From the NCBI GenBank assembly GCA_010093485.1, contig MU001496.1, positions 1,183,666 to 1,247,665 of the forward strand: a stretch of DNA of 64,000 bases, written 5' to 3'. Shown in pieces: positions 3,848 through 63,883 of the stretch (its first letter is position 1; each line of letters starts with the position of its first letter). Source of the stretch: Karstenula rhodostoma CBS 690.94 (taxonomy: Eukaryota > Ascomycota > Dothideomycetes > Pleosporales > Didymosphaeriaceae). The notes below the pieces were generated by a model. That model had not been told where the DNA came from, did no database searches, and was given only the letters and a program-made list of their open reading frames with translations. Both the position numbers and the translations under genes were made by a program.

Positions 3848-4430
3848 ATGCAGTACAGGTTGATTTCGGTGATAGCCGTTGGCGCTTTCTTCGTGAACGT
3901 GAGCGGACTGCCTATTGCGCAGCCGGAGGTATGAACTTCCTAGCACTTGTCCTGCGATGTTCCCAGCCACAACATATACTGATATCTTACAGGTGCAAGA
4001 CACTGTCAGCACAACTCTGCCAGATGACATACAACTTGGACCGCCCTCTACCGTTGTCACTTGGGGCAAGGAGAAGCGTGATGCCGACGCTCCCACCCCG
4101 ACCGATTCGTACTGGCTTGGAAAGCCGACTACCATCGTAACATGGGGAAAAGAGAAGCGTGACACGACTCTTCCGGACTTTGGGCTCGGCCCGCCCAGCA
4201 CAGAGATCGGATGGTCGAAGCGAAGTGGGTCGACGAAACCTGATGACACGATTGAACTCGGTCCTCCTTCGATGGTGGTGACATGGGGCAAGCGCGATAC
4301 GACTCCTCCGACATTTGGTCTTGGCCCACCAGACTCGACGATCGGCTGGGGCAAGGAGAAGCGCGATACGACTCCTCCCACGTTCGGACTGGGACCGCCG
4401 GACTCAACCATCGGATGGGGAAAGCAGTAG
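3848..4430 (+). CDS. Secreted Kex2-processed repeat peptide precursor (KEP-like), six repeats
   Basis: Two exons, 3848-3928 and 3993-4430, joined over a 64-bp intron (GTATGA...TTACAG, phase 0), encode 172 aa. Exon 1 encodes a signal peptide (hydrophobic core about residues 5-18, ending near VSG-LPIAQPE). Exon 2 is entirely repeat: six units of 29, 27, 21, 24, 23 and 21 codons starting at 3993, 4080, 4161, 4224, 4296 and 4365. The first five end in KR (three as WGKEKR, one WSKR, one WGKR); the last ends WGKQ-stop. The shared core is LG(P/K)P(S/T/D) followed by (V/I)(T/G)W(G/S)K. There is no cysteine. Known: fungal precursors with a signal peptide and KR-bounded repeats are cut by Kex2 in the Golgi and released as peptides (alpha-pheromones, dikaritin-type RiPPs, epichloecyclin precursors). 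Inference: this gene releases about 20-residue peptides. No DUF3328/UstYa gene lies nearby, so a cyclised RiPP is not supported. The repeats lack the usual Cys-containing ascomycete pheromone core. Confidence 0.88.
3993..4427 (+). repeat. Six in-frame peptide repeats inside the secreted precursor
   Basis: Units occupy 3993-4079, 4080-4160, 4161-4223, 4224-4295, 4296-4364 and 4365-4427. They fall into two classes by the residues before the cleavage site: VTW (units 1, 2, 4) and IGW (units 3, 5, 6). Units 5 and 6 are identical over 20 residues but differ at 12 codons. Confidence 0.9.
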
Positions 4431-11939: not shown

Positions 11940-12935
11940 TTACTCTTCCAGTAGTTTCAGGGTGGCCATCTCCCTTTCGACGGCGATTTCCATACCTGCT
12001 CCCGCTGCGGCCTTCATCCCGTCCGCCATTGAAACCGTGACCTGCTTCATAGGAGTGCATGTATCCCCGCCAGCAAACACACCTTTCACGCTTGTCGAGT
12101 TGCACATCGGGTTTACGATCTTGATATGTCCACCCATAGACGGTTCCACACATTCCACTCCCAGCTGTTCGATCAAGTCCTGTGACCTGTTCACTGTAGC
12201 CGCCTTGTGTGCGATGAATCCTAAGATAAGCGGTTCGCCTTCTTCGAATTCTACGGTCACACCTTCCTCGTGCGTAGGACCGTTGTTGACTAGACGCCTG
12301 ATCTTCCTCCCATCGATACTCGCGCCCCAGGCTTCGCATATCCGCAGTTGTTGCTTGATGGCTGCATCCTCGGGGACGACACCATTCGTCAACACAGTAA
12401 CACGCGAGTCAAAGTTCAGAGCCATATTCGTGAAGTGTGCCGTCTTCGAGCTGCAGTCGAGAACACCAATCGGCGTGCCGCGTTGCTCAAACCCATCGCA
12501 CGCGAGACATTGGTAGATGTGCTGAGGCCAGTTCTCCTTGAACCCCTCGATGTCCGGGAAGACGTCCCGCGAGCCCGTCGCCAAAATCAGTTTCTTGCCT
12601 TGGTGACTCTGCCCCTCGCTATCCGTGACTTCGAAGCCATCGTACTTTTCTTTTCCCAGCAGCTTCTTCACTGCTTGCGTGATGGTGACGTTATCGAACC
12701 ACACGCTGGGATAGCGCGATGTGATTTGCTCGCGGGCTATGCTGCGGAACTCGTAGGGGTTGATGTGGTCGCGGGAGGGCACGCTGTGCATGTGCGCTAT
12801 GCCTTCATTGCGGTAAGATTGGGAGTCGAAGACGATGGCTGTGGTGCGGGTGCGGGCGTAAACTAGGGAGGCGGCGAGGCCGGCGGGTCCGCTGCCTATG
12901 ATGAGGGCGTCTACTATCTGGGGGCGAGGGGGCAT
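11940..12935 (-). CDS. Thioredoxin-reductase-like FAD thiol oxidoreductase
   Basis: A single exon encodes 331 aa. Residues 11-20 carry the FAD dinucleotide motif GSGPAGLAAS. LATGSRDVFPDI matches the ATG motif of this flavoprotein fold. The redox pair is CLAC (QCLACDG), at the place where thioredoxin reductases have CATC. The C-terminus has GGDTCTPMKQV, the second FAD-binding motif. The region where NADPH reductases have GxGxxA reads IGVLDCSSKTAH and lacks the glycines. Known: members of this fold such as GliT oxidise dithiols in fungal toxin pathways and can use oxygen instead of NADPH. Inference: this enzyme may be a thiol oxidase rather than a reductase. No peptide synthetase or other toxin-pathway gene is visible around it. 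Confidence 0.85.
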   Translation of the reverse strand: MPPRPQIVDALIIGSGPAGLAASLVYARTRTTAIVFDSQSYRNEGIAHMHSVPSRDHINPYEFRSIAREQITSRYPSVWFDNVTITQAVKKLLGKEKYDGFEVTDSEGQSHQGKKLILATGSRDVFPDIEGFKENWPQHIYQCLACDGFEQRGTPIGVLDCSSKTAHFTNMALNFDSRVTVLTNGVVPEDAAIKQQLRICEAWGASIDGRKIRRLVNNGPTHEEGVTVEFEEGEPLILGFIAHKAATVNRSQDLIEQLGVECVEPSMGGHIKIVNPMCNSTSVKGVFAGGDTCTPMKQVTVSMADGMKAAAGAGMEIAVEREMATLKLLEE

Positions 12936-13587
12936 GTTGGTGGGATCGGTTGAGTGAACAAACTGCTGATTGTTTCGGGTGTTGACTGCAGTTCAAGCGC
13001 GAAAACGTTGTATGCGCAGTGATGTGTTGCTGACTGCTATTGTGAACGCGAACACTCTTGGTCATATAAATAAGGGCCAGCTCGGGATCTTCGAGTAGAG
13101 AGCCTGTCATCTTGAGTCTTGCCAGGCTCGCGGTGGGTTTAAAATCTCTCCGAAATGTCTCCCGGTCAATAGGAGGACGCTGGTAAGATCAACACAGATT
13201 ATGAGGATTCGAAACATGTTCTCTCACAAGATGTCTGATCAGGCTCGCGATAAGTTTTAATGAAAAGTCCCGCACGGAATATTGGTCGAGGGAAAGCGTG
13301 TTTGTTGTAGTTGGGATGGTGGACACTAGGGAAGTCTCCTTAGCCCGTCGGGCACTTTTAACACCAGGCTCTCGCTCATCTCTTCTCTTTGTCAGACATA
13401 CACTGCAGCTCGAAATTATCCTATCTTCGGGAACATTCATGCACGATTGACGACAAACAGCATGATTTGAGCAGATACTGCCTACCCCATTGAGCGCACT
13501 GCTCATAGCAAATTGTATTCAAGTGTATCAGTATTCCAACTCACGATGATATAGATACAGCATCTACGACCTCACAGCTCCTTTTCT
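12936..13587. other. Spacer between thiol oxidoreductase and AAA ATPase genes
   Basis: About 650 bp. The right part is the 3' end of the AAA ATPase gene and the left part the promoter of the oxidoreductase. No gene seen. Confidence 0.45.
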
Positions 13588-16931: not shown

Positions 16932-18207
16932 TCACTTTTGTGGCGGCTTGCTTGCAAGAAGTTTGTCTTGCTCTTCTTTGGGAAGTTTGTCCCAGTCCGC
17001 TACATTCTTATCCTGTGAGGACAATTAGCACGTCGCTCGGAAAGAGCATCTTGTCGATTACACTTACCCATTCGGCAATGCACTCTACCTTCCAATTGCA
17101 TTTCTCTACCTCACCGTACATGGGATGGTTGCGACGCGGGTGGAGCGATGGCCAGCCCGACGCATGATAGTGGTGTTTGACCAGCGCCCCCCTGGAATCG
17201 TGATTCCCTGAGTCGGAATGGCCCTGGCCTGCAGCGAAGGCTTCCACGTTCAGGACCAGTATACCATGGACGAGCCTTGACTCCGCCAGGTTATGGAAAG
17301 GATCCCAAGTCACTTCTTTGCCCCCGTTCATCGCAGTCATCTGGGCAAGGACTGCATCTGTGAAAGCCGATGGGCCTGTTCCGCTGATTACCTCGTTGAA
17401 GTCGAGCTCAAGCTGTCCGACGGGCACTCCTTTCGTCTTGGACAGATTGTGAACCCATTCTTGGATGTTCTCGATCAGCCTCATCATGACAGGAAGTCGA
17501 GGCTTAGCCGCAAACGTCCATTGGCAGAACGATTTGCACTTGGAACCTAGAACGGGATGGCCTGCAAAGGCAGGCTCATCAATCTCCACTCCAATGATCA
17601 TGTCGACCTCGAGCTCGGCGTAGCGCTCGGGAATAAAACGGTGGACTGGCCGCAAGCATTCCACATCGATATCTGCGTACACTCCGCCCTCGGCATACAT
17701 GATCAAATAACGCAAAAGGTCCGCTCGTATGATCGTAATATTGAGCGCTCGGTAGAGATCGACGATGTCTGGTCGGTTGAAGCCATGGACGCCATAGTGC
17801 TCTTCGACGTATTCGAGAGCATTGTCATCTGTCAGAACCTCATATCGATAGTTCGGGTTCTTTGCCGGCCATGTCTTCGCTGTATCCGAATCTCGCTGTT
17901 CGAAGGTGAGCGGTCCTTGTTTCCAGGTCTGCCAGATCTTCTTCGGGATGGTGGTCGTCGATGCTTGCAGGGGCTGCTGGTACTTAAGCTCCCTCCTGTA
18001 CTTGTGTGCCGCTCGGATGGGAGCGGTGAAGAAATGTGTATTGGCGAAGAGGAGGATGATGAATAGAAGAGCAAGGTATGCAGGCAGCACTCTTCGGACT
18101 TGAGTGGTCAGTCTGCTTCTGAAGTGTGAAGCAATCGGCGAGTGGACAGGCATCTTCGTGTCAAGATGGAGCTTCAGCGGTGGAGGTCTGAAGGACCGCG
18201 TTTGCAT
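16932..18207 (-). CDS. GT32 family glycosyltransferase (Och1-like, type II membrane)
   Basis: Exons 17068-18207 and 16932-17012, over a 55-bp intron, encode 406 aa. Without the second exon the frame would read intron sequence after ECIAEW; the splice restores DKNVADWDKLPKEEQ and a natural end at PPQK. One membrane segment (about residues 40-60) after a basic cytosolic tail marks a Golgi type II protein. GT32 signs are IPKKIWQTWKQ, LRYLIMYAEGG and the DxD motif in VYADIDVECLRP, which binds the nucleotide sugar with a metal. Och1/Hoc1-type enzymes transfer mannose from GDP-mannose; donor specificity here is inferred. A second Met at residue 19 could be the true start. It is transcribed divergently from the acyltransferase gene. 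Confidence 0.92.
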
Positions 18208-18997
18208 GCTGGTCTCAATTGGAGGTTGCAGCTGCGCGCCTTTTTGCCAGCTTTGACGCTCAGGGAGCTATGGAGGACTCATCAAGCAGCTCCTTGCTAC
18301 TCGAGGTTTCGTTTCCCTAATCCTTACCCTGCGCGATACGCAGCCAGTAACGAAGAGCCTCGGCCAGGAGGCGGCATGACGTTAACTGAAAGGACCTCGA
18401 AGGAGCGATAGACACTCGGTACGTACGTGAAAGGCAGGTCAATATCTCGTCCGACAGGGGAAAACATTGAACACTGCATGCCCATACTACCGGCTCGCAG
18501 GCCTCACCGGCACAATACGCTGAGTTGGGATAGTGTCCCAGCCAAGCTAAAGCTTACACAGGTAGACGACTCCGCAGTTGCAGACGCCACCAAAACGTTT
18601 TCGGAACGCGACAACGTGATGCTGCCAGGACCTGGCCTGATGATCCACTCACATGCTTGGAGGAACTATGCGTCCGTGCCCTGCATGTGAAGGTCCGAGC
18701 AAATTGCTCGCCGATCCTGACCCCAGCAAACTTTATCCCCGCATCTGCAGTAAATCAGCCCATGGCTTAACCAATCATCATCATTCGGCCTTCAACGTCC
18801 CGGTATTAGGCCTGGTCAGTATGAAGTCCATGCTTCTGGCACGCAGGCAAAACCGTGCATTGAATTGTGGAGGCTTTTGGGGGGATGGCCAATTCCTTCG
18901 CAGGTCCCCGCAGTGAAAGTCATAGTGTTCTCTTCACATCGTGGTATCTCACACCATCACTGCAAAGTCTCGGTCACCTCAACGAAGCCCATACACA
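18208..18997. promoter_or_regulatory. Divergent promoter region between GT32 and acyltransferase genes
   Basis: A 790-bp interval between opposite start codons, so shared regulation of the two genes is possible. No recognisable site was found. Confidence 0.45.
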
Positions 18998-20479
18998 ATG
19001 CCGGCGAAGTACGAAGGCTTCCTAGACCAGGAACGAATGCAGGAAGTCAGTTCCCATTCTGCGACTTGGAAATCCGTACGACCAGGAAGATGGAGTCTCG
19101 ACGTTGTTCGACCTCAGTTCTTCGCTATGCGTCCTGGCAGTCCAAAAAAACGATTGCGGCCGACAGCATGGCTTGATGGCCTTCGAGGCTTTGCAGCTTT
19201 ACTCGTCTACATCCATCACAACCAGCTTTGGGCTCACGACTCAAAAGGAAATCTCATCTACGAAAACGCATTCGGCTATGAAGGCAGACATTATTTCGCT
19301 GCTTTGCCTTTTGTTCGACACTTTTTCTCGGGCGGCCACTTTGCGGTCTCCATCTTCTTCGTTATCTCGGGATACGTGCTTTCCGTAAAATCACTCAGTT
19401 TGATCCACAAGGGCCAACATCAAAACGTAACGGACAGTGTCGGCTCAGCACTCTTTCGGCGCTGGATTCGACTCTACATTCCGGTTATCGCGGTCAGTCT
19501 GTTGTGCATGGTATTGCGACACTACCCCGGGATTCACCCCGCATACGGTGAAAAGAAAGAAACCTTCCGTGAGGACCTCTGGAACTACTACACAACCTTC
19601 AAGAACTACAGCTTTGTATTCCTGACTGGCAACATGTATGAATTTCCTCTACTATACCACCCTCACTCATGGTCGATCCCCATCGAGTTCAAAGGATCAA
19701 TCGTTGTCTATACCGCCCTCTTGGCCCTTTCCAAGTGTACCAGGAACGCGCGACTATGGCTTGAGGCAGGACTCATCTTCTATTTCCTGTACATCGTGGA
19801 TGGATGGTACGGCGCCCTGTTCATGGCTGGAATGATGTTGTGCGACCTGGAGCTGCTCGCGGTCAACGACAAACTGCCGCGCATTTTCTCCAAGCTTGAG
19901 GACTTCAAGGAATTGATATTCTTCCACCTCTTCATCACTGCGATGTATCTTGGAGGCGTGCCATCTTGCGATGGGGATGACTTTACAGGCAGGTTGAAGA
20001 ACTCGCCAGGTTGGAAGTGGTTGTCACATCTCAAGCCTCAAGCTGTCTTCGACGGGAAATGGTTCTACCTTTTTTGGGCGGCTTTATTCACGGTCGCATC
20101 AGTCCCACGGTTGCCTTGGCTGAAGCAGTTCTTCGAAACCCGCTTTTGCCAATACCTTGGCCGTGTTTCTTTCGCGCTGTACCTCGTACACGGCCCGGTT
20201 ATATTCTTCATAGCTGACCGTATCTACGCTGCGGTCGGCCTCACGAGAGATGATCACGAGCTCCGCATTCCAGACTGGATGAACAAATTCCCCATTTCGA
20301 CGAGTGGGCCAATGGGAGTCGAATTGGCTTTCTGGGCAGCACAGTTGATTATCTTTCCGATTACACTGTGGGCAGCAGAAGTGGTGACCAAATTGTTTGA
20401 CGAACCGAGCGTTAAATTCGCCAATTGGCTCTACAACAAGTCACTGGCCTCGCCCTTGTCACCAAAGTTTGTAGCTTAA
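18998..20479 (+). CDS. Acyltransferase-3 family integral membrane O-acyltransferase
   Basis: A single exon encodes 493 aa from the ATG at 18998; the frame is open further upstream, but from a GTG only. The family signature is clear: WLDGLRGFAALLVYIHH near residue 57, a catalytic-type His pair in that segment, then HFAVSIFFVISGYVLS, RRWIRLYIPV, HSWSIPIEFKGSIVVY and YLGRVSFALYLVHGPV. Around ten hydrophobic segments are visible. Members move acetyl or other acyl groups from a cytosolic donor onto sugars, lipids or peptidic acceptors at a membrane. Sitting between two glycosyltransferase genes, it is most easily read as decorating a glycan or glycolipid, which is an inference. Confidence 0.94.
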   Translation: MPAKYEGFLDQERMQEVSSHSATWKSVRPGRWSLDVVRPQFFAMRPGSPKKRLRPTAWLDGLRGFAALLVYIHHNQLWAHDSKGNLIYENAFGYEGRHYFAALPFVRHFFSGGHFAVSIFFVISGYVLSVKSLSLIHKGQHQNVTDSVGSALFRRWIRLYIPVIAVSLLCMVLRHYPGIHPAYGEKKETFREDLWNYYTTFKNYSFVFLTGNMYEFPLLYHPHSWSIPIEFKGSIVVYTALLALSKCTRNARLWLEAGLIFYFLYIVDGWYGALFMAGMMLCDLELLAVNDKLPRIFSKLEDFKELIFFHLFITAMYLGGVPSCDGDDFTGRLKNSPGWKWLSHLKPQAVFDGKWFYLFWAALFTVASVPRLPWLKQFFETRFCQYLGRVSFALYLVHGPVIFFIADRIYAAVGLTRDDHELRIPDWMNKFPISTSGPMGVELAFWAAQLIIFPITLWAAEVVTKLFDEPSVKFANWLYNKSLASPLSPKFVA

Positions 20480-21340
20480 TATCAGCGACGTGAATAGTTT
20501 AGAAAAATGGAATCAGTTCGAACTGCCAAACCCATGTTCCCCCGATATCGCTATTTTCTGTGCATACGCACAGTAACCTCCCTGGCTCGGAGGCCTGGTG
20601 TGGGGCTCAGACGGGAGGATTGTAGGGTCAGCAGATACGTCTTTGTCTATGCACTATGCAAGCTGGATCTTGCAGATCTGGGAGATTACGCCTACAAAGA
20701 CCTCGCGCTAGGATTCCGAGGGGAGAGATTGTACGAGTGTGCTCGTGTGTCGTGTGTCGTGTGCCGTTATTTCACATGTACCTCGGACTAGAATCTGAGC
20801 TGGACGCCGCAATCTTCCAGCCTCAAAAACAGCTGAATCCTTGCTCCCAACCAGGATGAGAATTATTGGCTATCCATAAACGGTGCTGCGTCCGGCGCTA
20901 AATCCCCATACATACCCCAGAAGGCGACCCGTTAGCGGGGTAAGTTCCCGGGCCCCTGCGCTACGCCGCCGATCCGCATCGATGTGAATGGTGGCAGAGT
21001 ACTGACTTCCCGAAGTGCGGCATGCTCATCGGGCATCTGAGAATCGTGCAGATCTGAAGCATGTACTGTGCACCAACTGCGATACCGCGGCATCTCCCAG
21101 GATCCTTGTCTCGCATGCCAACTCATGACGCTCAACTCGACCCTTGTATGCTCAACCATTTTCATCACAGTGCATCTCATCAGATGTCGTAATAGCGGTG
21201 GCCAGTCACTGATCCCTTCCGGCTTATTGAGGCCATCTTATCTGTCGCTCGGAAAGTGACCTGGACGAGATAGGAAAGGCCCCAGCCTTGGGGTTCAAGC
21301 TCCTTGTTTAGCAGCGAGACCGTCCAGCATCTTCACAACT
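20480..21340. other. Spacer between acyltransferase and GT8 genes
   Basis: About 860 bp containing the acyltransferase 3' end and GT8 promoter. A short GTGTC-type simple repeat lies near 20737-20766. No gene seen. Confidence 0.45.
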
Positions 21341-22660
21341 ATGCGACGCTGGCGCAGTGTCGCGACAGCGACACTCATCCTCATAACAGTCATCTATTTG
21401 ATCACACTGAATCAAGCAGCCATATCAGACAACTACTCTTTTGGCAAACCTTTTACAGAGTGGGATCAAGATGGGTTCGGAAACAGTAAGGCGCAGGAAA
21501 GGCCAGCGGAATCGAATGACTCTGAAGCCGTGAAAGCGTCATCGGATTTAGGGCCACATCCACCAGAATCACTCCCGAATGAAGCAACACCGCAGGAAGC
21601 GAACAAAGACCTGTTGAACATTCATGTAAACCATGAGCCCGACCTAGCATTACCGGATAGTTCACAGCTACCTCCACCAACCGAGCCTGTGCAAGTAGGC
21701 TTCCAAGCTGAGTTCGGCTTCCAGAAAGACCTAGAGCTAGATCTACCTGTGGACGCCTTGAGAAAATTCAGCAACAACAGACCACACAACTACGATCCTA
21801 CCGGACCCAAGACCAACGTGTATGCCACATTCATGGCAACCAACAATCCCTCGATAAAAGATCCGTACTATATGGCCATTCACTCGTTGATCTATCGCCT
21901 TCTCTGGTCTCCCAAATCTCGAAGTGAAAAGTACGCCTTCGTTGTCTACGTCGCAAACTACGTTACACCGGAACAGCGGGAGCTTCTCGCGGGAGCCGGT
22001 GCCGTCGTTCGAGAGCTCGAAATGCTCGAATGGGACCCTCAAGTCGAGGGCATCCAAAGCCGCTGGAAGAACCTATTCGCCAAACTCAACATGTGGAAAG
22101 AGACGGAATTCTCGCGGATATTTTCCCTGGACGCAGATGCATTCCCGGTTACGAACATTGATGCCATATTCGAAACCGCCACCGAACAGAACTGTATCGA
22201 AGCGAAGCTTGCTCCCGAAGACTATCTGCTCGACGGTACATCCACTTGCGAGCCTTACGTCTTCGCAGGCATCCCTCAAGATCCTTTCAACCCAATCGCC
22301 AAAAACATCAACGGAGGAGCCCTTGTTTTCTCCCCCTCAACACGCATGCATCAGCGCTTTCTGCAGAACTATCTCAAGTTTGACAAGTACGATGTTAAGC
22401 TGGTTGAGCAGGCTTTCTTGAACTGGCAATTCGATATCAACGGCGCATTTCCCGCTCAACAATTGGAGAGGCAGTGGAATGCCGCGTTTCCGAATGACGA
22501 GGACGAAGGAAAAGTCAAAGTGGTGCATGAAAAGATCTGGAATGAAGAACGGGAGTGGTTGAAGAAGGAGTGGGTGGATGAATGGGTGGCAATGACGCAG
22601 TTCTACATGAGCGAGGCCTTTGTCAACGCTAGATTCCTGGATGGACTGGCTCAGGGTTAG
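21341..22660 (+). CDS. GT8-like (glycogenin-type) glycosyltransferase, type II membrane
   Basis: A single exon encodes 439 aa. A membrane segment (about residues 7-24) follows a short basic tail, and a Pro/Glu-rich stem runs to about residue 140. The catalytic part has NVYATFMATN, the segment SEKYAFVVYVANYVTPEQ, RWKNLFAKLNMW, and SLDADAFPVTNID with the metal-binding DxD. NINGGALVFSPS is typical of GT8 enzymes. Glycogenin-like GT8 proteins use UDP-sugars; a stem and signal anchor argue for a Golgi enzyme rather than glycogenin. It is co-oriented with the acyltransferase gene and probably belongs to the same glycan process. Confidence 0.9.
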   Translation: MRRWRSVATATLILITVIYLITLNQAAISDNYSFGKPFTEWDQDGFGNSKAQERPAESNDSEAVKASSDLGPHPPESLPNEATPQEANKDLLNIHVNHEPDLALPDSSQLPPPTEPVQVGFQAEFGFQKDLELDLPVDALRKFSNNRPHNYDPTGPKTNVYATFMATNNPSIKDPYYMAIHSLIYRLLWSPKSRSEKYAFVVYVANYVTPEQRELLAGAGAVVRELEMLEWDPQVEGIQSRWKNLFAKLNMWKETEFSRIFSLDADAFPVTNIDAIFETATEQNCIEAKLAPEDYLLDGTSTCEPYVFAGIPQDPFNPIAKNINGGALVFSPSTRMHQRFLQNYLKFDKYDVKLVEQAFLNWQFDINGAFPAQQLERQWNAAFPNDEDEGKVKVVHEKIWNEEREWLKKEWVDEWVAMTQFYMSEAFVNARFLDGLAQG

Positions 22661-26022: not shown

Positions 26023-27002
26023 TCACTTGGTAAGAGTTCCGAAAACATGAGGGACCGTCGCGTACCAGGTCTCTTCGGGAGGCTGCACCAGGTCAAGTCT
26101 CTCCCAGGGCCCCGCCTGCAAAAGGCTATTTTTTGTATCTGAATACGCGCAGGCGATTAGTAGATGTCTCAGCAAAGCGCGCAGCGGAAGACGATCTAGA
26201 CTAGCTTACCTCTGCACAACTCGCAACCCCCTATGATGTGCGGCCAAAACAGATTGACGAACGCTAACCGATACGTAAGCTGGGAACCTGCGACAAGAAT
26301 CCAATGCCACCCACCTTGATAGAAACGCATAAAGTAGTTCTTATTAGTCTTCACATGCTCGAAGATGTACCACCTGCCGCCCTTTTTCAGGTATTGGTAA
26401 AGTTCGGCGATATTTTCCTCGGGCTCAGGAATGCCGCACAGGCAGAGCAGAGTGACGATGCAATCAACGCTTCCCTTTTCGATCTTGCTGGTGCTGCCAT
26501 CAATTTCTGTCACTTCGACTTTCGAAATGTCCTGTATTCCAGTTGGGATGATGTTGTAAACGCCGTCGAGGCCCGCTTGGTGGGCTCTCATTTGCAGGCC
26601 TGCATGTGCCGTCGTATTCGGCTCGACCCCATACACTTTCAAATCGCCCGTGTTGCTTTTGGCGTAGAGGTCAACCCAGAAGCCGGGCCCGGGCCCGATA
26701 TCCAGGATGACGCCACTGACGGGGGGCACCACAGGCTTATCGACCACCCGACCCTGGCTCACGCGACCTTCCAGAAGCGCTGTAATGCGCGGCCCGTTCC
26801 CAACTCGAATGTTCGCACCAGCCCGAGCCCAAAACGCATTGAACCAGGCATCTCGAATGCGAGAAAAGGATATGTTTTGGAGTGGCTCCGTCTGCACCAA
26901 GTGCTTGATGGCCCCAGGAAGGTACGATATAGCAATACCCAAGAACTGCCAGGGAAACAGCAGCGACAAGCAGACTGTAAAGAAGTCTTGAACGGCAGTC
27001 AT
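26023..27002 (-). CDS. Membrane-anchored class I SAM-dependent methyltransferase
   Basis: Exons 26210-27002 and 26023-26138 encode 302 aa. The intron has a textbook branch sequence (CTACTAAT) and splicing adds the conserved-looking end AGPWERLDLVQPP to GTLTK. The start at MTAVQDFF is chosen over upstream in-frame codons because a hydrophobic anchor follows at once (FFTVCLSLLFPWQFLGIA). SAM-binding motif I is VILDIGPGPGFW, followed by VYGVEPN (motif II acid) and DCIVTLLCLCGIPEP (motif IV region). YLKKGGRWYIFEHV is typical of type-11 methyltransferases. The layout resembles METTL7-type membrane enzymes; the substrate is unknown. It lies just upstream of the SDR on the same strand. Confidence 0.88.
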
Positions 27003-28254
27003 CTTCAGTGTTGTTTGGTTGGGTTGCAAAAGTGGTTGAAGCAGGTATGATTTTGCCGAAGCAGTAGTGAGGGAGAAAGGCGGGAAAGTGGGGCATATGG
27101 GAACGCCATTTCCAACGAGCATTGGGAGACTTTATATACAAACGCAGCGGATAGTGCCGCCTTTCAGCGGTGCTAGACGATAACATCGCCGAGCTGGTGC
27201 CGAACAAACATGTATACTTCGGGTTGCCGTATCAGAACAGTAAGCGGAGAGGACCGGAAAATTGCCATGGCCCGACGCTACTGTTGGTATAGGATTAGCG
27301 AATTGTTCCAAATGGAGACGTACACACCAAGTTGTATGATCATTGTTGGGGCTGGGTCGCTCTCAAATCTAGGGATCCGGCACCACATGTATACAGCATT
27401 GGACGAATCTAGGGAAAGCAATTTGTGGGCGATGTGATATTTGTCTACATGGTCATCTGAACAAAGAGTACATTGGCAAGTGGGATGAAATTGTATATTC
27501 ACGGTCTACATGTTCCGAGGCGAAATCCTGCCGTCAGCTGGAGCCTATCCGAATAAAAACAAGACCGAGCCTTCCTAGGCTTCCACCCACTACTCTGCGA
27601 ATACGTGGCGGTTCCAATGGATCACAGTGAATGAGAAGCGATCACTTGTGCATCCCGTTGGGCAGAATGATTCCAATTCGATGTCGTCTTGGTTGGTTGA
27701 CTGCGCCGAATGTTCCTGACCAAATGTGAGCATGAAATCTGTGCACCCATCTTGGCCATCATTGTACGCGCTGATGAATAATACAGGCGTGACAACGATA
27801 TGTCTCTCACCATCAAACCGCGACCTTCATTGTCAACTCAGGAGCGGTCTGCAGGCGAGCATAGCTTTTGTGAAGCCATGTGTAATCATTCTCCGCTAGT
27901 CGTATAACTTGATTCAACCATCGAGAAAGGTTGGCAAGTAGATATCCTAGCGTTTGGGGAGGTCTCGCGATCGGCGAGGATTGATGGGCAACGAAGGGGA
28001 ATGCACGGTGCAGTCAAGGTGGTATCGCTTATGATCGTAACCTATGTCGTTGTTACATGCCATCGTAGGCGTGTCCATAGCCCGAGCTGAACTGATATAA
28101 CGCCCCTAATTTTTCCATGCATTGTGGCATATCGAAAGTGGTGTAGACTTGTTATGCATTCCGTCCGCTCGATGTAAAGGGCTACAGCCCGCGCCTATGC
28201 CCCGGGCATTCCAGCCATGAAATTGTCGTGAACCAGAGAAAACCACGCCACCGT
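27003..28254. other. Spacer, no gene seen
   Basis: About 1.25 kb between the methyltransferase start and RPL26 stop, both on the minus strand. Only short unsupported frames occur. Confidence 0.45.
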
Positions 28255-61996: not shown

Positions 61997-63883
61997 CTAC
62001 CATCCGCCACCGATGCTGCTTGCAAGACCGGCGACTCTCTCTACATCGTTCACTTTCTTCCCAACGTCGCTTTCTACCTTGCGGTACGACGTGTATACCA
62101 AGTTTTGCGTGTCAACCCCGGTGATGGCGGACCAATGGCTCAGGATGCCCTGGATGTACTTCTTCGAGATGCCGTTCACGATGTCTCCGTCAGGGAGACT
62201 GTTCGTCCCATTGGTATCGATGTCCTGCATCTCCTGGTCGACATCTACTTCGTCTTCCGAGCCTGAGAAGTAGGCTTCGTCCACCCGCCCTTGCCACTCT
62301 TTCTGCTCCTTGGGGCCCGGCCTGGAAGAAACGACATCGCCATTGACAGCCTGGACGCCCTCGTATGCCCGCACTTCTTCTACCTCGCTGACCTTGACTT
62401 GGCCACCGCCATTTGTGCATCCTCCAGGACACGCCATGACCTCCACATATGCGTAGTCTTTCACTGTTTCCACTGCCGCACCGTTCGGCTTCCGGCTTCC
62501 GCCCACCCTTGCGCCCGGCATTTTGCTAACTTTTGCGGGCTTTAGTCGCCGCACGAGGTTCTGGATGTTGCGGAAGCCGTAGTATCGGGCCATCTTGACA
62601 ATGGTCTCGGATCCGCGCACGAGCGTGTAGTCGATTACGTCGGTGTTCCTCCCCTGTTTTACTACGATCTCCGAGCCGGGATTTTGCGCTTGGTATGTAT
62701 GCAGTATGTGGTGGAGATAGCCACCCGAAGGCCCAGCATCTGGGTTTTGGTTCTTTCGGCGCGAGGGTGGGAAGAGGAAAGCATCGAGTTTCGGGTCTGG
62801 GAAGGGTGTCCGTTGGGAAGAGGGTAAAGGTGAACGGGAGAGGTTCGCGAAGTTGATGTTGCGCGCGGCGGCGAGGTGCAGCAGTTCGCGGGCAGTGATA
62901 ACACAATCGGTGTCTCGTACGGGGTCCTGCGCGGAATCATGGTTAGGAAGCCAGACGGAAGAAGTAAGCTCGCTCCTGCTGGCCTCGAGCTTCTTGTCAA
63001 AGCATGGCATGACGGCAAGATGCCATATTTGAGAGGGCGGAACGTTGTAACGCTGGCTCAGCACCGACTTGAGCAGCGTCCCGGTCAAAGCCTGCGGGGA
63101 CTTCATACGCGAGAGGTGTGGGAGGACGTAGGGATGTGTTTTTTCGGCGTAGCATATCCAGCCGGGGCATGCTGATGTGAGGATGGGCTTCTTTGGTGTG
63201 GTATCGATGGCTCCTTCTGAGCCAGATTCTGACGGCGCATTCGAAGTCTCTGACGAAAGGGCCGTGACAACCTCGTTGGCGGCCGCCTCGAGACACGCGT
63301 CCCGGACGACATTGGTATCGATGACCCAGGTGAAGTCACTACCGTTGTGTCCACCAGCTTGCAGCCCTGACGGACCACTGAGCAGTTGGGCAATCATGTT
63401 CCCAACTTCAACCTCAGTGACGGAGAATACGGCGGCCAAGCTTGCGCGGGTCTGCGGGGAGACGCTGGCTACGAACAGCTTGCCCTCGGCATGTTGGCCA
63501 CTCACGCCATTTGTTGTGCCATTGTGTGCTTCCCACGGCGCGCGTAACGACCGGTAGGTATCGAGCGTGGTGAGGACCTCGGTATGCGACTGGAGCGACA
63601 CCAGCATGGCCTCGGCGCTGGTCACGCATCCTGAGCATGCCAGGCAGTCGGTAAGCGATAGCGTTGCGGGCGGCGGCGGTTGTGAGGCTGCGACTTTGTC
63701 TTCGGTGGTGACTTCGTATGCATTCTAGCATTTGTCAGTATGGGCGATGACGCATGCGCGCGCGAGCGAGGATCGTACGGCGTCGGCGGGTTTTGCCGCG
63801 GGCAGGGTTTCTATGGGCTTTATGCATGCGACGCCCGGCGATATGAAGTCGTTCAGGTCGTCTGCGGAGAGAATGGCGCTCAT
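61997..63883 (-). CDS. nar1: Nar1, cytosolic iron-sulfur cluster assembly factor
   Basis: Exons 63779-63883 and 61997-63724 (54-bp intron) encode 610 aa. The N-terminus [19 protein letters not shown] holds the first ligand Cys; exon 2 adds NAYEVTTED and DCLACSGC, completing the N-terminal cluster site. The hydrogenase-like body shows [23 protein letters not shown] and [11 protein letters not shown], the C-terminal cluster ligands. The protein ends SSIGGGW with a terminal Trp, in keeping with the aromatic C-termini of CIA-targeted proteins. Nar1 is an essential member of the CIA machinery, linking the early Nbp35/Cfd1 scaffold to the Cia1-Cia2-Met18 targeting complex. Extra length lies in Ser/Gly-rich loops. 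Identity is firm. Confidence 0.96.

What the first reader, a model, noticed from the sequence alone, without database searches (positions are those of the whole stretch)
3848..4430. Secreted precursor built of six Kex2-bounded Trp-Gly-Lys peptides
Seen: a signal peptide, then nothing but six repeats with a core LGPP...(V/I)(T/G)WGK, the first five ending in KR. Known: this is the design of fungal Kex2-processed repeat proteins, which release pheromones, signalling peptides or RiPP cores. The core here is Cys-free and unlike the Cys-containing ascomycete alpha-pheromone core, and no DUF3328 or other RiPP-modifying gene lies within about 60 kb. Inference: a secreted linear peptide signal of an undescribed class, around 20 residues per unit.
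Basis: partly seen in the sequence, partly recalled or inferred. Interest (0 to 1): 0.88.

Follow-up and report, generated by a model that had tools for sequence, protein, structure and literature searches.

The report
Fungal precursor of repeated secreted peptides
This is a gene, apparently unannotated, of the fungus Karstenula rhodostoma whose protein looks built to be cut into six short secreted peptides ending near a tryptophan; related precursors occur in several other fungi of the same order, and what the peptides do is not known.

Summary
Exons 3848-3928 and 3993-4430 around a 64-bp intron encode 172 residues: a likely signal peptide and six units with a core LG[PK]P-x(3-5)-[VI][TG]W[GS]K, the first five ending in KR. 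The unit is under selection as peptide: the last two share 20 residues but differ at 12 bases, all silent.

The genome is Karstenula rhodostoma (Pleosporales): its second precursor is 100% identical to a protein of strain CBS 690.94. The gene belongs to a conserved family: 31 database proteins at E < 1e-3; the ten with organism names come from Bipolaris, Alternaria, Stemphylium, Boeremia and Ascochyta. A longer architecture (456-855 aa in named records, Cys-containing C-terminus) carries a related unit in K. rhodostoma and ten further named genera.

Best reading: a Kex2-processed repeat protein (KEP) releasing linear acidic peptides of about 19-34 residues ending in W-G, W-S or WGKE. The nearest UstYa/DUF3328 match is 143 kb away. 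Receptor and function are unknown. KEPs are a known kind; I found no name for this family in the papers searched.

The parts
3848..4430 (+). whole precursor gene, two exons, 172 aa
3848..3907 (+). predicted signal peptide MQYRLISVIAVGAFFVNVSG (cleavage site inferred)
   Evidence: hydropathy; similar start in many relatives
3929..3992 (+). 64-bp GT-AG intron, phase 0, after the codon for E27
   Evidence: read-through models of relatives at the homologous place
3908..4079 (+). unit 1 (interrupted by the intron) LPIAQPEVQDTVSTTLPDDIQLGPPSTVVTWGKEKR
4080..4160 (+). unit 2 DADAPTPTDSYWLGKPTTIVTWGKEKR; DADA is an XA-XA (Ste13-like) start
4161..4223 (+). unit 3 DTTLPDFGLGPPSTEIGWSKR
4224..4295 (+). 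unit 4 SGSTKPDDTIELGPPSMVVTWGKR
4296..4364 (+). unit 5 DTTPPTFGLGPPDSTIGWGKEKR
4365..4427 (+). unit 6 DTTPPTFGLGPPDSTIGWGKQ, no dibasic end; 20 residues identical to unit 5 with 12 silent differences

Best explanation
The gene encodes a Kex2-processed repeat protein. Shown from sequence: a hydrophobic start, six units, dibasic ends, purifying selection on the unit, conservation across several genera of Pleosporales, a second precursor with a related unit in the same genome, and one kexin candidate in the genome. Inferred: the precursor enters the ER, stays unfolded, and Kex2 cuts after each KR in the Golgi. A Kex1-type carboxypeptidase then strips the basic residues, giving linear acidic peptides of about 19-34 residues that end in W-G (from WGKR), W-S (from WSKR) or WGKE (from WGKEKR). 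Natural ends of relatives match this: 14 of 33 precursor models stop at VTWS and 8 of 33 at WGKE. A Ste13-type aminopeptidase may trim some N-termini. The peptides are most likely released as extracellular fungal signals or as peptides acting on the biotic surroundings; which of the two is not decided.
For: Gene structure. Silent-only change: 12 of 12 differences between units 5 and 6 silent, about 1.3e-7 under a simple model in which 26.7% of substitutions are silent. Homologues: 9 proteins from P0001; 32 at E<=10 from profile A1, 31 of them below 1e-3 (where only the 7,991 candidates sharing most words were scored). 148 W-anchored stretches in 33 proteins give P-x-D-T-I-E-L-G-K-P-S-T-[EV]-[VI]-T-W-[GS]-[KR]-R (a few of the 148 are misfires of the loose expression). 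Precursor ends: 14 VTWS and 8 WGKE of 33. Long paralogue in the same genome: found by P0001 at E 1.5e-4 and, searched back, gives 3 matches at E<=1, itself and two in this gene; profile-profile E 3.8e-18, probability 99. A PSSM trained only on 104 distinct short-family stretches scores >=4 at 90 of 422 W positions of 27 long proteins, against 3 of 13,941 other positions and 1 of 21,100 shuffles. One P_proprotein domain, in a frame of 853 aa: a kexin candidate. Model of the precursor without confident fold (mean pLDDT 43). No UstYa match within 143 kb.
Against: No expression, peptide or phenotype data. The low-confidence model may only reflect a shallow, repetitive alignment. In the long paralogues only 163 of 290 W motifs are followed by KR/RR within four residues, so there the motif also occurs where no peptide end is predicted. 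In the K. rhodostoma long protein itself only 2 of 17 W positions reach the PSSM threshold and both are followed by D, not by KR. Two window genes of general kinds that could in principle modify a peptide, a Pyr_redox_2 protein at 11940-12992 and a methyltransferase at 26196-27131, are not excluded. Knockouts of KEP genes in Coprinopsis cinerea gave no detectable phenotype (PMC9769878, abstract), so a strong signalling role cannot be assumed.
Confidence: 0.78

Rival explanations
1. The released peptides are structural: the STVVTW-type ends are short beta-strands that self-assemble on hyphae, as Kex2-cut Rep1 peptides of Ustilago maydis do.
For: The six residues ending at W have a higher mean Chou-Fasman strand value than the rest (1.18 against 0.86). 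Long paralogues carry many [ST]-x-[ST]-W stretches, also without KR. [quoted passage not shown]
Against: The W residue and LGKPST are more conserved than a general strand would need (my judgement). Peptides are acidic and rich in Pro and Gly. AlphaFold gives no confident strand. Chou-Fasman is a weak predictor.
Confidence: 0.15
2. It is the alpha-type mating pheromone of this lineage, read by Ste2.
For: Precursor design like alpha-factor. Some XA-XA starts after KR (short form XAX[AP] at 4 of 107 sites, among them DADA in the window; long form 27 of 197, ten of them EAEAQ or DAEAQ). The genome has one Ste2 gene. The known Pleosporales motif PYG[LM]P[IV]G has 0 matches in this genome, and the relaxed YG[LMIF]P[IVM]G has 8 isolated matches, none in a KR-repeat frame.
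Against: The family occurs in Alternaria, a genus with the PYG[L/M]P[I/V]G pheromone (PMC6339444, section read). The core shares neither that motif nor the Cys motif. For the Cys motif W-C-x3-G-[QE]-x-C (recalled) the genome gives 16 matches against 12 for the control, i.e. background; the eight of these 16 that I read in frame were no precursors. X-P, the other Ste13 signature, is rarer after KR than elsewhere (second residue P at 1 of 107 short and 14 of 197 long sites, background 9.5% and 20%). Two different precursors of one unit in a genome is unusual for a pheromone (recalled). An exact-codon pattern can miss a diverged pheromone.
Confidence: 0.07
3. It is a RiPP precursor of the dikaritin kind, cyclised by UstYa enzymes encoded elsewhere in the genome.
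For: 59 UstYa matches genome-wide, exon by exon.
Against: No match within 143 kb, whereas DUF3328 genes that accompany KEP genes lay on average 3.09 genes away in the survey (PMC7329392 abstract). Only one Tyr in the six units, and Tyr is called mandatory for the known cyclisations (PMC7329392 discussion).
Confidence: 0.04
4. The conserved W-G-K-R gives C-terminally amidated peptides (W-amide), as in animal neuropeptides.
For: GKR is the classical amidation signal (recalled); +1 of W is G in 85 of 148 stretches.
Against: Position +1 is S in 44 of 148 and 14 of 33 precursor models end at W-S, which cannot be amidated this way. No Cu2_monooxygen match in the genome, but the control genomes gave none either, so this is uninformative.
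Confidence: 0.02

Closest known systems
KEX2-processed repeat proteins (KEPs; Le Marquer 2019, Umemura 2020)
   Same: Signal peptide, three or more units bounded by dibasic sites, no Pfam domain found.
   Different: The units are degenerate rather than identical, and the core is not among the conserved cores listed in the section that I read (DADAATXYV[A/V]D, YVW[G/A][G/S], SPPHKT, QKLKVD, EDYXI). YVW[G/A][G/S] is the nearest in look but lacks LGKPST and the TW.
Unnamed KEP type G-9 (#16) of Umemura 2020
   Same: 48 KEPs in 48 strains of 14 genera, among them Bipolaris, Alternaria, Stemphylium and Ascochyta, none with DUF3328 (table read).
   Different: Its motif is in a figure and a supplement not held here, so I cannot say whether it is this family, the long form or the Pleosporales pheromone.
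Pleosporales alpha-pheromone precursors (PYG[L/M]P[I/V]G)
   Same: Kex2 repeat precursors in the same order, whose conserved core has no Cys.
   Different: Core motif not shared; exact motif not found in this genome.
Rep1 repellent of Ustilago maydis
   Same: Kex2-cut into several short secreted peptides (passages).
   Different: No sequence comparison was made; self-assembly untested here.
Long W-G-K-R precursors, e.g. K. rhodostoma P171DRAFT_435466 (P0035)
   Same: Related unit of the form P-x-[DN]-x-I-x-[LI]-x-x-P-x-x-x-[VIF]-[ST]-W-G-K-R (my reading) and a P-E-A-Q-like stretch after the signal peptide.
   Different: 456-855 aa in named records, acidic proline-rich spacers, many W motifs without KR, conserved Cys-containing C-terminus.

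Membership tests
KEX2-processed repeat protein | N-terminal signal peptide | tested here: inconclusive
   Hydropathy peak and similar start in relatives; no SignalP run
KEX2-processed repeat protein | at least 3 tandem repeats of 8 aa or more between KR/KK/RK/RR sites | tested here: met
   six units, five KR sites; criterion read; the survey's own repeat-scoring program was not run
KEX2-processed repeat protein | a kexin in the genome | tested here: met
   one P_proprotein domain match at C13:363652-363912, E 4.4e-29; the subtilisin domain was not scanned
KEX2-processed repeat protein | peptides actually released | not testable with these tools
   needs peptidomics
Dikaritin-type RiPP precursor | UstYa/DUF3328 gene nearby (within 15 genes in the survey) | tested here: not met
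   nearest matches 143 kb upstream and 211 kb downstream
Dikaritin-type RiPP precursor | Tyr in the core | tested here: not met
   one Tyr in six units; requirement read
Ascomycete alpha-pheromone | Cys-type core or Pleosporales PYG[L/M]P[I/V]G core | tested here: not met
   sequence of the units; motif read
Ascomycete alpha-pheromone | Ste13 dipeptides (XA/XP) after KR | tested here: inconclusive
   window: 1 of 5 sites (DADA); short family second residue A at 12 of 107 against 3.3% background, P at 1 of 107 against 9.5%
Ascomycete alpha-pheromone | recognition by Ste2 | not testable with these tools
   Ste2 is present
Rep1-type repellent | self-assembly on the hyphal surface | not testable with these tools
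   only a strand-propensity difference
Short-form W-[GS]-K-R family (this report) | significant homology to the conserved unit | tested here: met
   E 3.0e-30 to 2.4e-9 for 9 of 9 hits

The most novel reading that the evidence does not exclude
An order-wide peptide-hormone system of Pleosporales unrelated to mating: one conserved Trp-ending unit delivered by two precursor architectures (a short string of units, and a long precursor with a Cys-containing tail) and read by a receptor other than Ste2.
Probability: 0.3. Interest if true: 0.68.

Novelty: new member of a known kind. Interest (0 to 1): 0.45.

Why it matters
Functions of fungal KEP peptides are largely unknown (PMC9769878, abstract). 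Here is a KEP family conserved in well-studied genera such as Bipolaris and Alternaria, with a predicted peptide end that relatives themselves display as the natural C-terminus, and with two precursors in one genome. That makes a clean target for peptidomics and double deletion. The gene itself appears to be missed by the public annotation of the strain.

Tried and rejected
Looked for a canonical alpha-pheromone precursor in the genome with four codon patterns. PYGxPxG gave 18 matches against 37 for the control. Matches read in frame: 4 of the 18 and 8 of the 16, and 8 of 8; none of those read is a KR-repeat precursor. A first DNA pattern for the core hit two other places and missed the gene, because the gap I allowed was a base too short for units 5 and 6; those two places were not studied. 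Pfam finds nothing in P0001 or P0034. A weak hit in a 154-aa frame on C4 (E 0.06) lies opposite a 456-aa frame that reads as a FAD monooxygenase (my reading, no Pfam run), and one on C8 (E 0.058) lies in a 6602-aa frame; both taken as chance. The structure models have too little confidence (mean pLDDT 43 and 35), so no fold search was made. One search scanned window frames of 60 aa or more for a 3-residue context repeated three times or more before KR/RR: only this gene came up. P0033 (E 1.3) and some W-anchored stretches caught by the loose expression (for instance in P0018 at 67 and P0032 at 22) are probably not real units; they were not removed from the 148. One search used distinct stretches of P0002-P0033 under a slightly different expression.

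Literature: ten searches; two searches gave no paper. Of the papers listed I opened four (PMC6339444, PMC7329392, PMC9769878, PMC8528282); the rest were seen as listings only, including the 15 shown of 3,371. So 'no name found' means none in those searches and those sections.

Full report
What is there. The gene at 3848-4430 (+) has two exons around a 64-bp GT-AG intron (3929-3992) and encodes 172 residues. After a hydrophobic start come six units, the first five ending in KR. The pattern LG[PK]P.{3,5}[VI][TG]W[GS]K occurs six times in residues 28-172 and in none of 20,000 shuffles of them.

It is a real coding gene under selection for its peptide. Units 5 and 6 share 20 identical residues but differ at 12 bases, all third positions and all silent; 26.7% of single changes of unit 5 would be silent, so about 1.3e-7 in a simple model with equal rates. 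This pair was chosen because its residues are identical, and the model ignores transition bias; the figure is a guide.

The intron. In 7 of the 33 precursor models (window plus 32 database proteins) a stretch starting with V and ending with Q or K stands where the window has its intron; for three of them a close relative lacks it (P0014 against P0012, P0015 against P0005, P0024 against P0021). I read these as the same intron left in by gene callers.

Whose genome. The window lies in a 44.3-Mb, 29-contig genome. A second precursor on contig C16 is 100% identical over the 522 residues searched to the 542-aa P171DRAFT_435466 of Karstenula rhodostoma CBS 690.94, a member of Didymosphaeriaceae, Pleosporales. 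No record of the window protein itself was returned by two searches, so it seems unannotated, within the length and word limits of that tool.

The family. From P0001 nine proteins were found (E 3.0e-30 to 2.4e-9), from the profile 32 at E up to 10, 31 of them below 1e-3 and one (P0033) at 1.3 (only the 7,991 candidates sharing most words were scored). The ten with organism names are from Bipolaris (four species), Alternaria (two), Stemphylium, Boeremia and Ascochyta (two); that these are all Pleosporales is recalled. The 148 W-anchored stretches give P-x-D-T-I-E-L-G-K-P-S-T-[EV]-[VI]-T-W-[GS]-[KR]-R. Models hold one to nine W motifs; the low counts look like fragments. Fourteen of 33 end at VTWS and eight at WGKE. 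These are the very ends expected after Kex2 and Kex1-type trimming of WSKR and WGKEKR, which is my main ground for the predicted mature C-terminus.

A second architecture. P0001 finds the C16 gene at E 1.5e-4 and 1.1e-3, and the C16 protein in turn gives three matches at E up to 1, itself and two in this gene. Twenty-seven long relatives at E up to 0.01 (again with capped candidates) include named ones from eleven genera: Karstenula, Paraphaeosphaeria, Kalmusia, Paraconiothyrium, Didymosphaeria, Bimuria, Melanomma, Neocucurbitaria, Byssothecium, Periconia and Lophiotrema. The profiles of the two forms align with probability 99 and E 3.8e-18, which repeats may inflate. An independent test: a matrix trained on 104 distinct short-form stretches scores at least 4 at 90 of 422 W positions of the 27 long proteins, against 3 of 13,941 other positions and 1 of 21,100 shuffled windows. 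Against this, most W positions (332 of 422) do not reach it. In the K. rhodostoma long protein only 2 of 17 do, and both are followed by D; its KR-bearing units, such as NSIGIQPPQVSFSWGKR (-11.5), score low. Only 163 of 290 W motifs of the long form are followed by KR/RR within four residues. So common descent of the two forms is well supported, but the long form's cleaved units have drifted from the short core. No named Alternaria or Bipolaris protein appeared among the long forms and no named protein of Karstenula's suborder (suborders of the others recalled) among the short ones; K. rhodostoma has both.

Surroundings. I scanned 28 of the 81 stop-to-stop frames of 150 aa or more (list) with Pfam. 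Hits: a PPR protein, Leo1, a Pyr_redox_2 oxidoreductase, DUF7025, a sugar transferase, an acyltransferase, a GT8-like enzyme, a methyltransferase, a KOW protein, a CCCH zinc finger, a kinase and an iron-hydrogenase-like protein. The oxidoreductase (11940-12992) and the methyltransferase (26196-27131) are of general kinds; I have no sign that they act on the peptide, but this is not excluded. The next gene downstream reads as an ARF GTPase (5775 onwards; recognised from its residues, not scanned). UstYa has 59 matches in the genome; the nearest on this contig are 143 kb upstream and 211 kb downstream. Two 10-kb stretches upstream were listed for frames only.

How it most likely works. Shown: precursor design, selection, conservation, one kexin candidate in the genome. 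Inferred: secretion, Kex2 cleavage, basic-residue trimming, and release of linear acidic peptides of 19 to 34 residues. A Ste13-like start is seen at unit 2 (DADA) and at 27 of 197 sites in the long form (XAX[AP]); X-P is not enriched. AlphaFold gives no confident fold for the precursor (mean pLDDT 43), as expected of a chain meant to be cut, though a shallow alignment would give the same. Function is open: signal, peptide acting on other organisms, or self-assembling surface peptide.

Against known kinds. It meets the published KEP criterion of three or more repeats between dibasic sites (method read), though I did not run that survey's program. It fails both features of dikaritin precursors that I could test. 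K. rhodostoma has Ste2, but I did not find its pheromone with exact motif patterns, so a pheromone role is unlikely rather than excluded. Six core strings occur in none of the 5.39 million held papers; motif tables in supplements and figures were not readable, and the unnamed type G-9 of PMC7329392 could be this family (table read). Papers: PMC6339444, outline with abstract, sections 8, 9, 10, 17 and passages; PMC7329392, outline with abstract, sections 6, 9, 13 and passages; PMC9769878, outline with abstract; PMC8528282, passages.

Verdict. A true and conserved peptide precursor of a known kind, whose sequence family I found nowhere named in the literature I could search.

Noticed in passing
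L005 952-2598 (-), G000:C16:1221968-1223533: The long paralogue ends in a conserved Cys-containing part (C..PPCVPPTCPH..C...EIEKTIVTI...CPTYTCVPW in many of the relatives read) without any Pfam hit in P0034; the model gives it strands only at low confidence.
   Followed up: partly
long-form proteins P0035-P0061: Sites KR-EAEAQ / KR-DAEAQ look like alpha-factor spacers and would leave an N-terminal Gln; Q follows KR/RR directly at 100 of 197 sites.
   Followed up: partly
whole genome G000: 59 UstYa/DUF3328 matches (exon by exon, so fewer genes), several in groups on C5, C18 and C21: probable RiPP clusters.
   Followed up: no
window 17008-22660: A sugar transferase (DXD), an acyltransferase 3 and a GT8-like gene lie side by side, perhaps a small glycan-modifying group.
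   Followed up: no
window 61997-63724 (-): Iron-only hydrogenase-like protein, probably the Fe-S assembly factor Nar1 (Pfam; the name Nar1 is recalled).
   Followed up: no
P0033: A metagenomic protein named lipoprotein-anchoring transpeptidase by its source holds a stretch like a unit of this family near its start (IQIGTPTTTVGWNKEKRD); the name looks wrong or the hit is chance (E 1.3).
   Followed up: no
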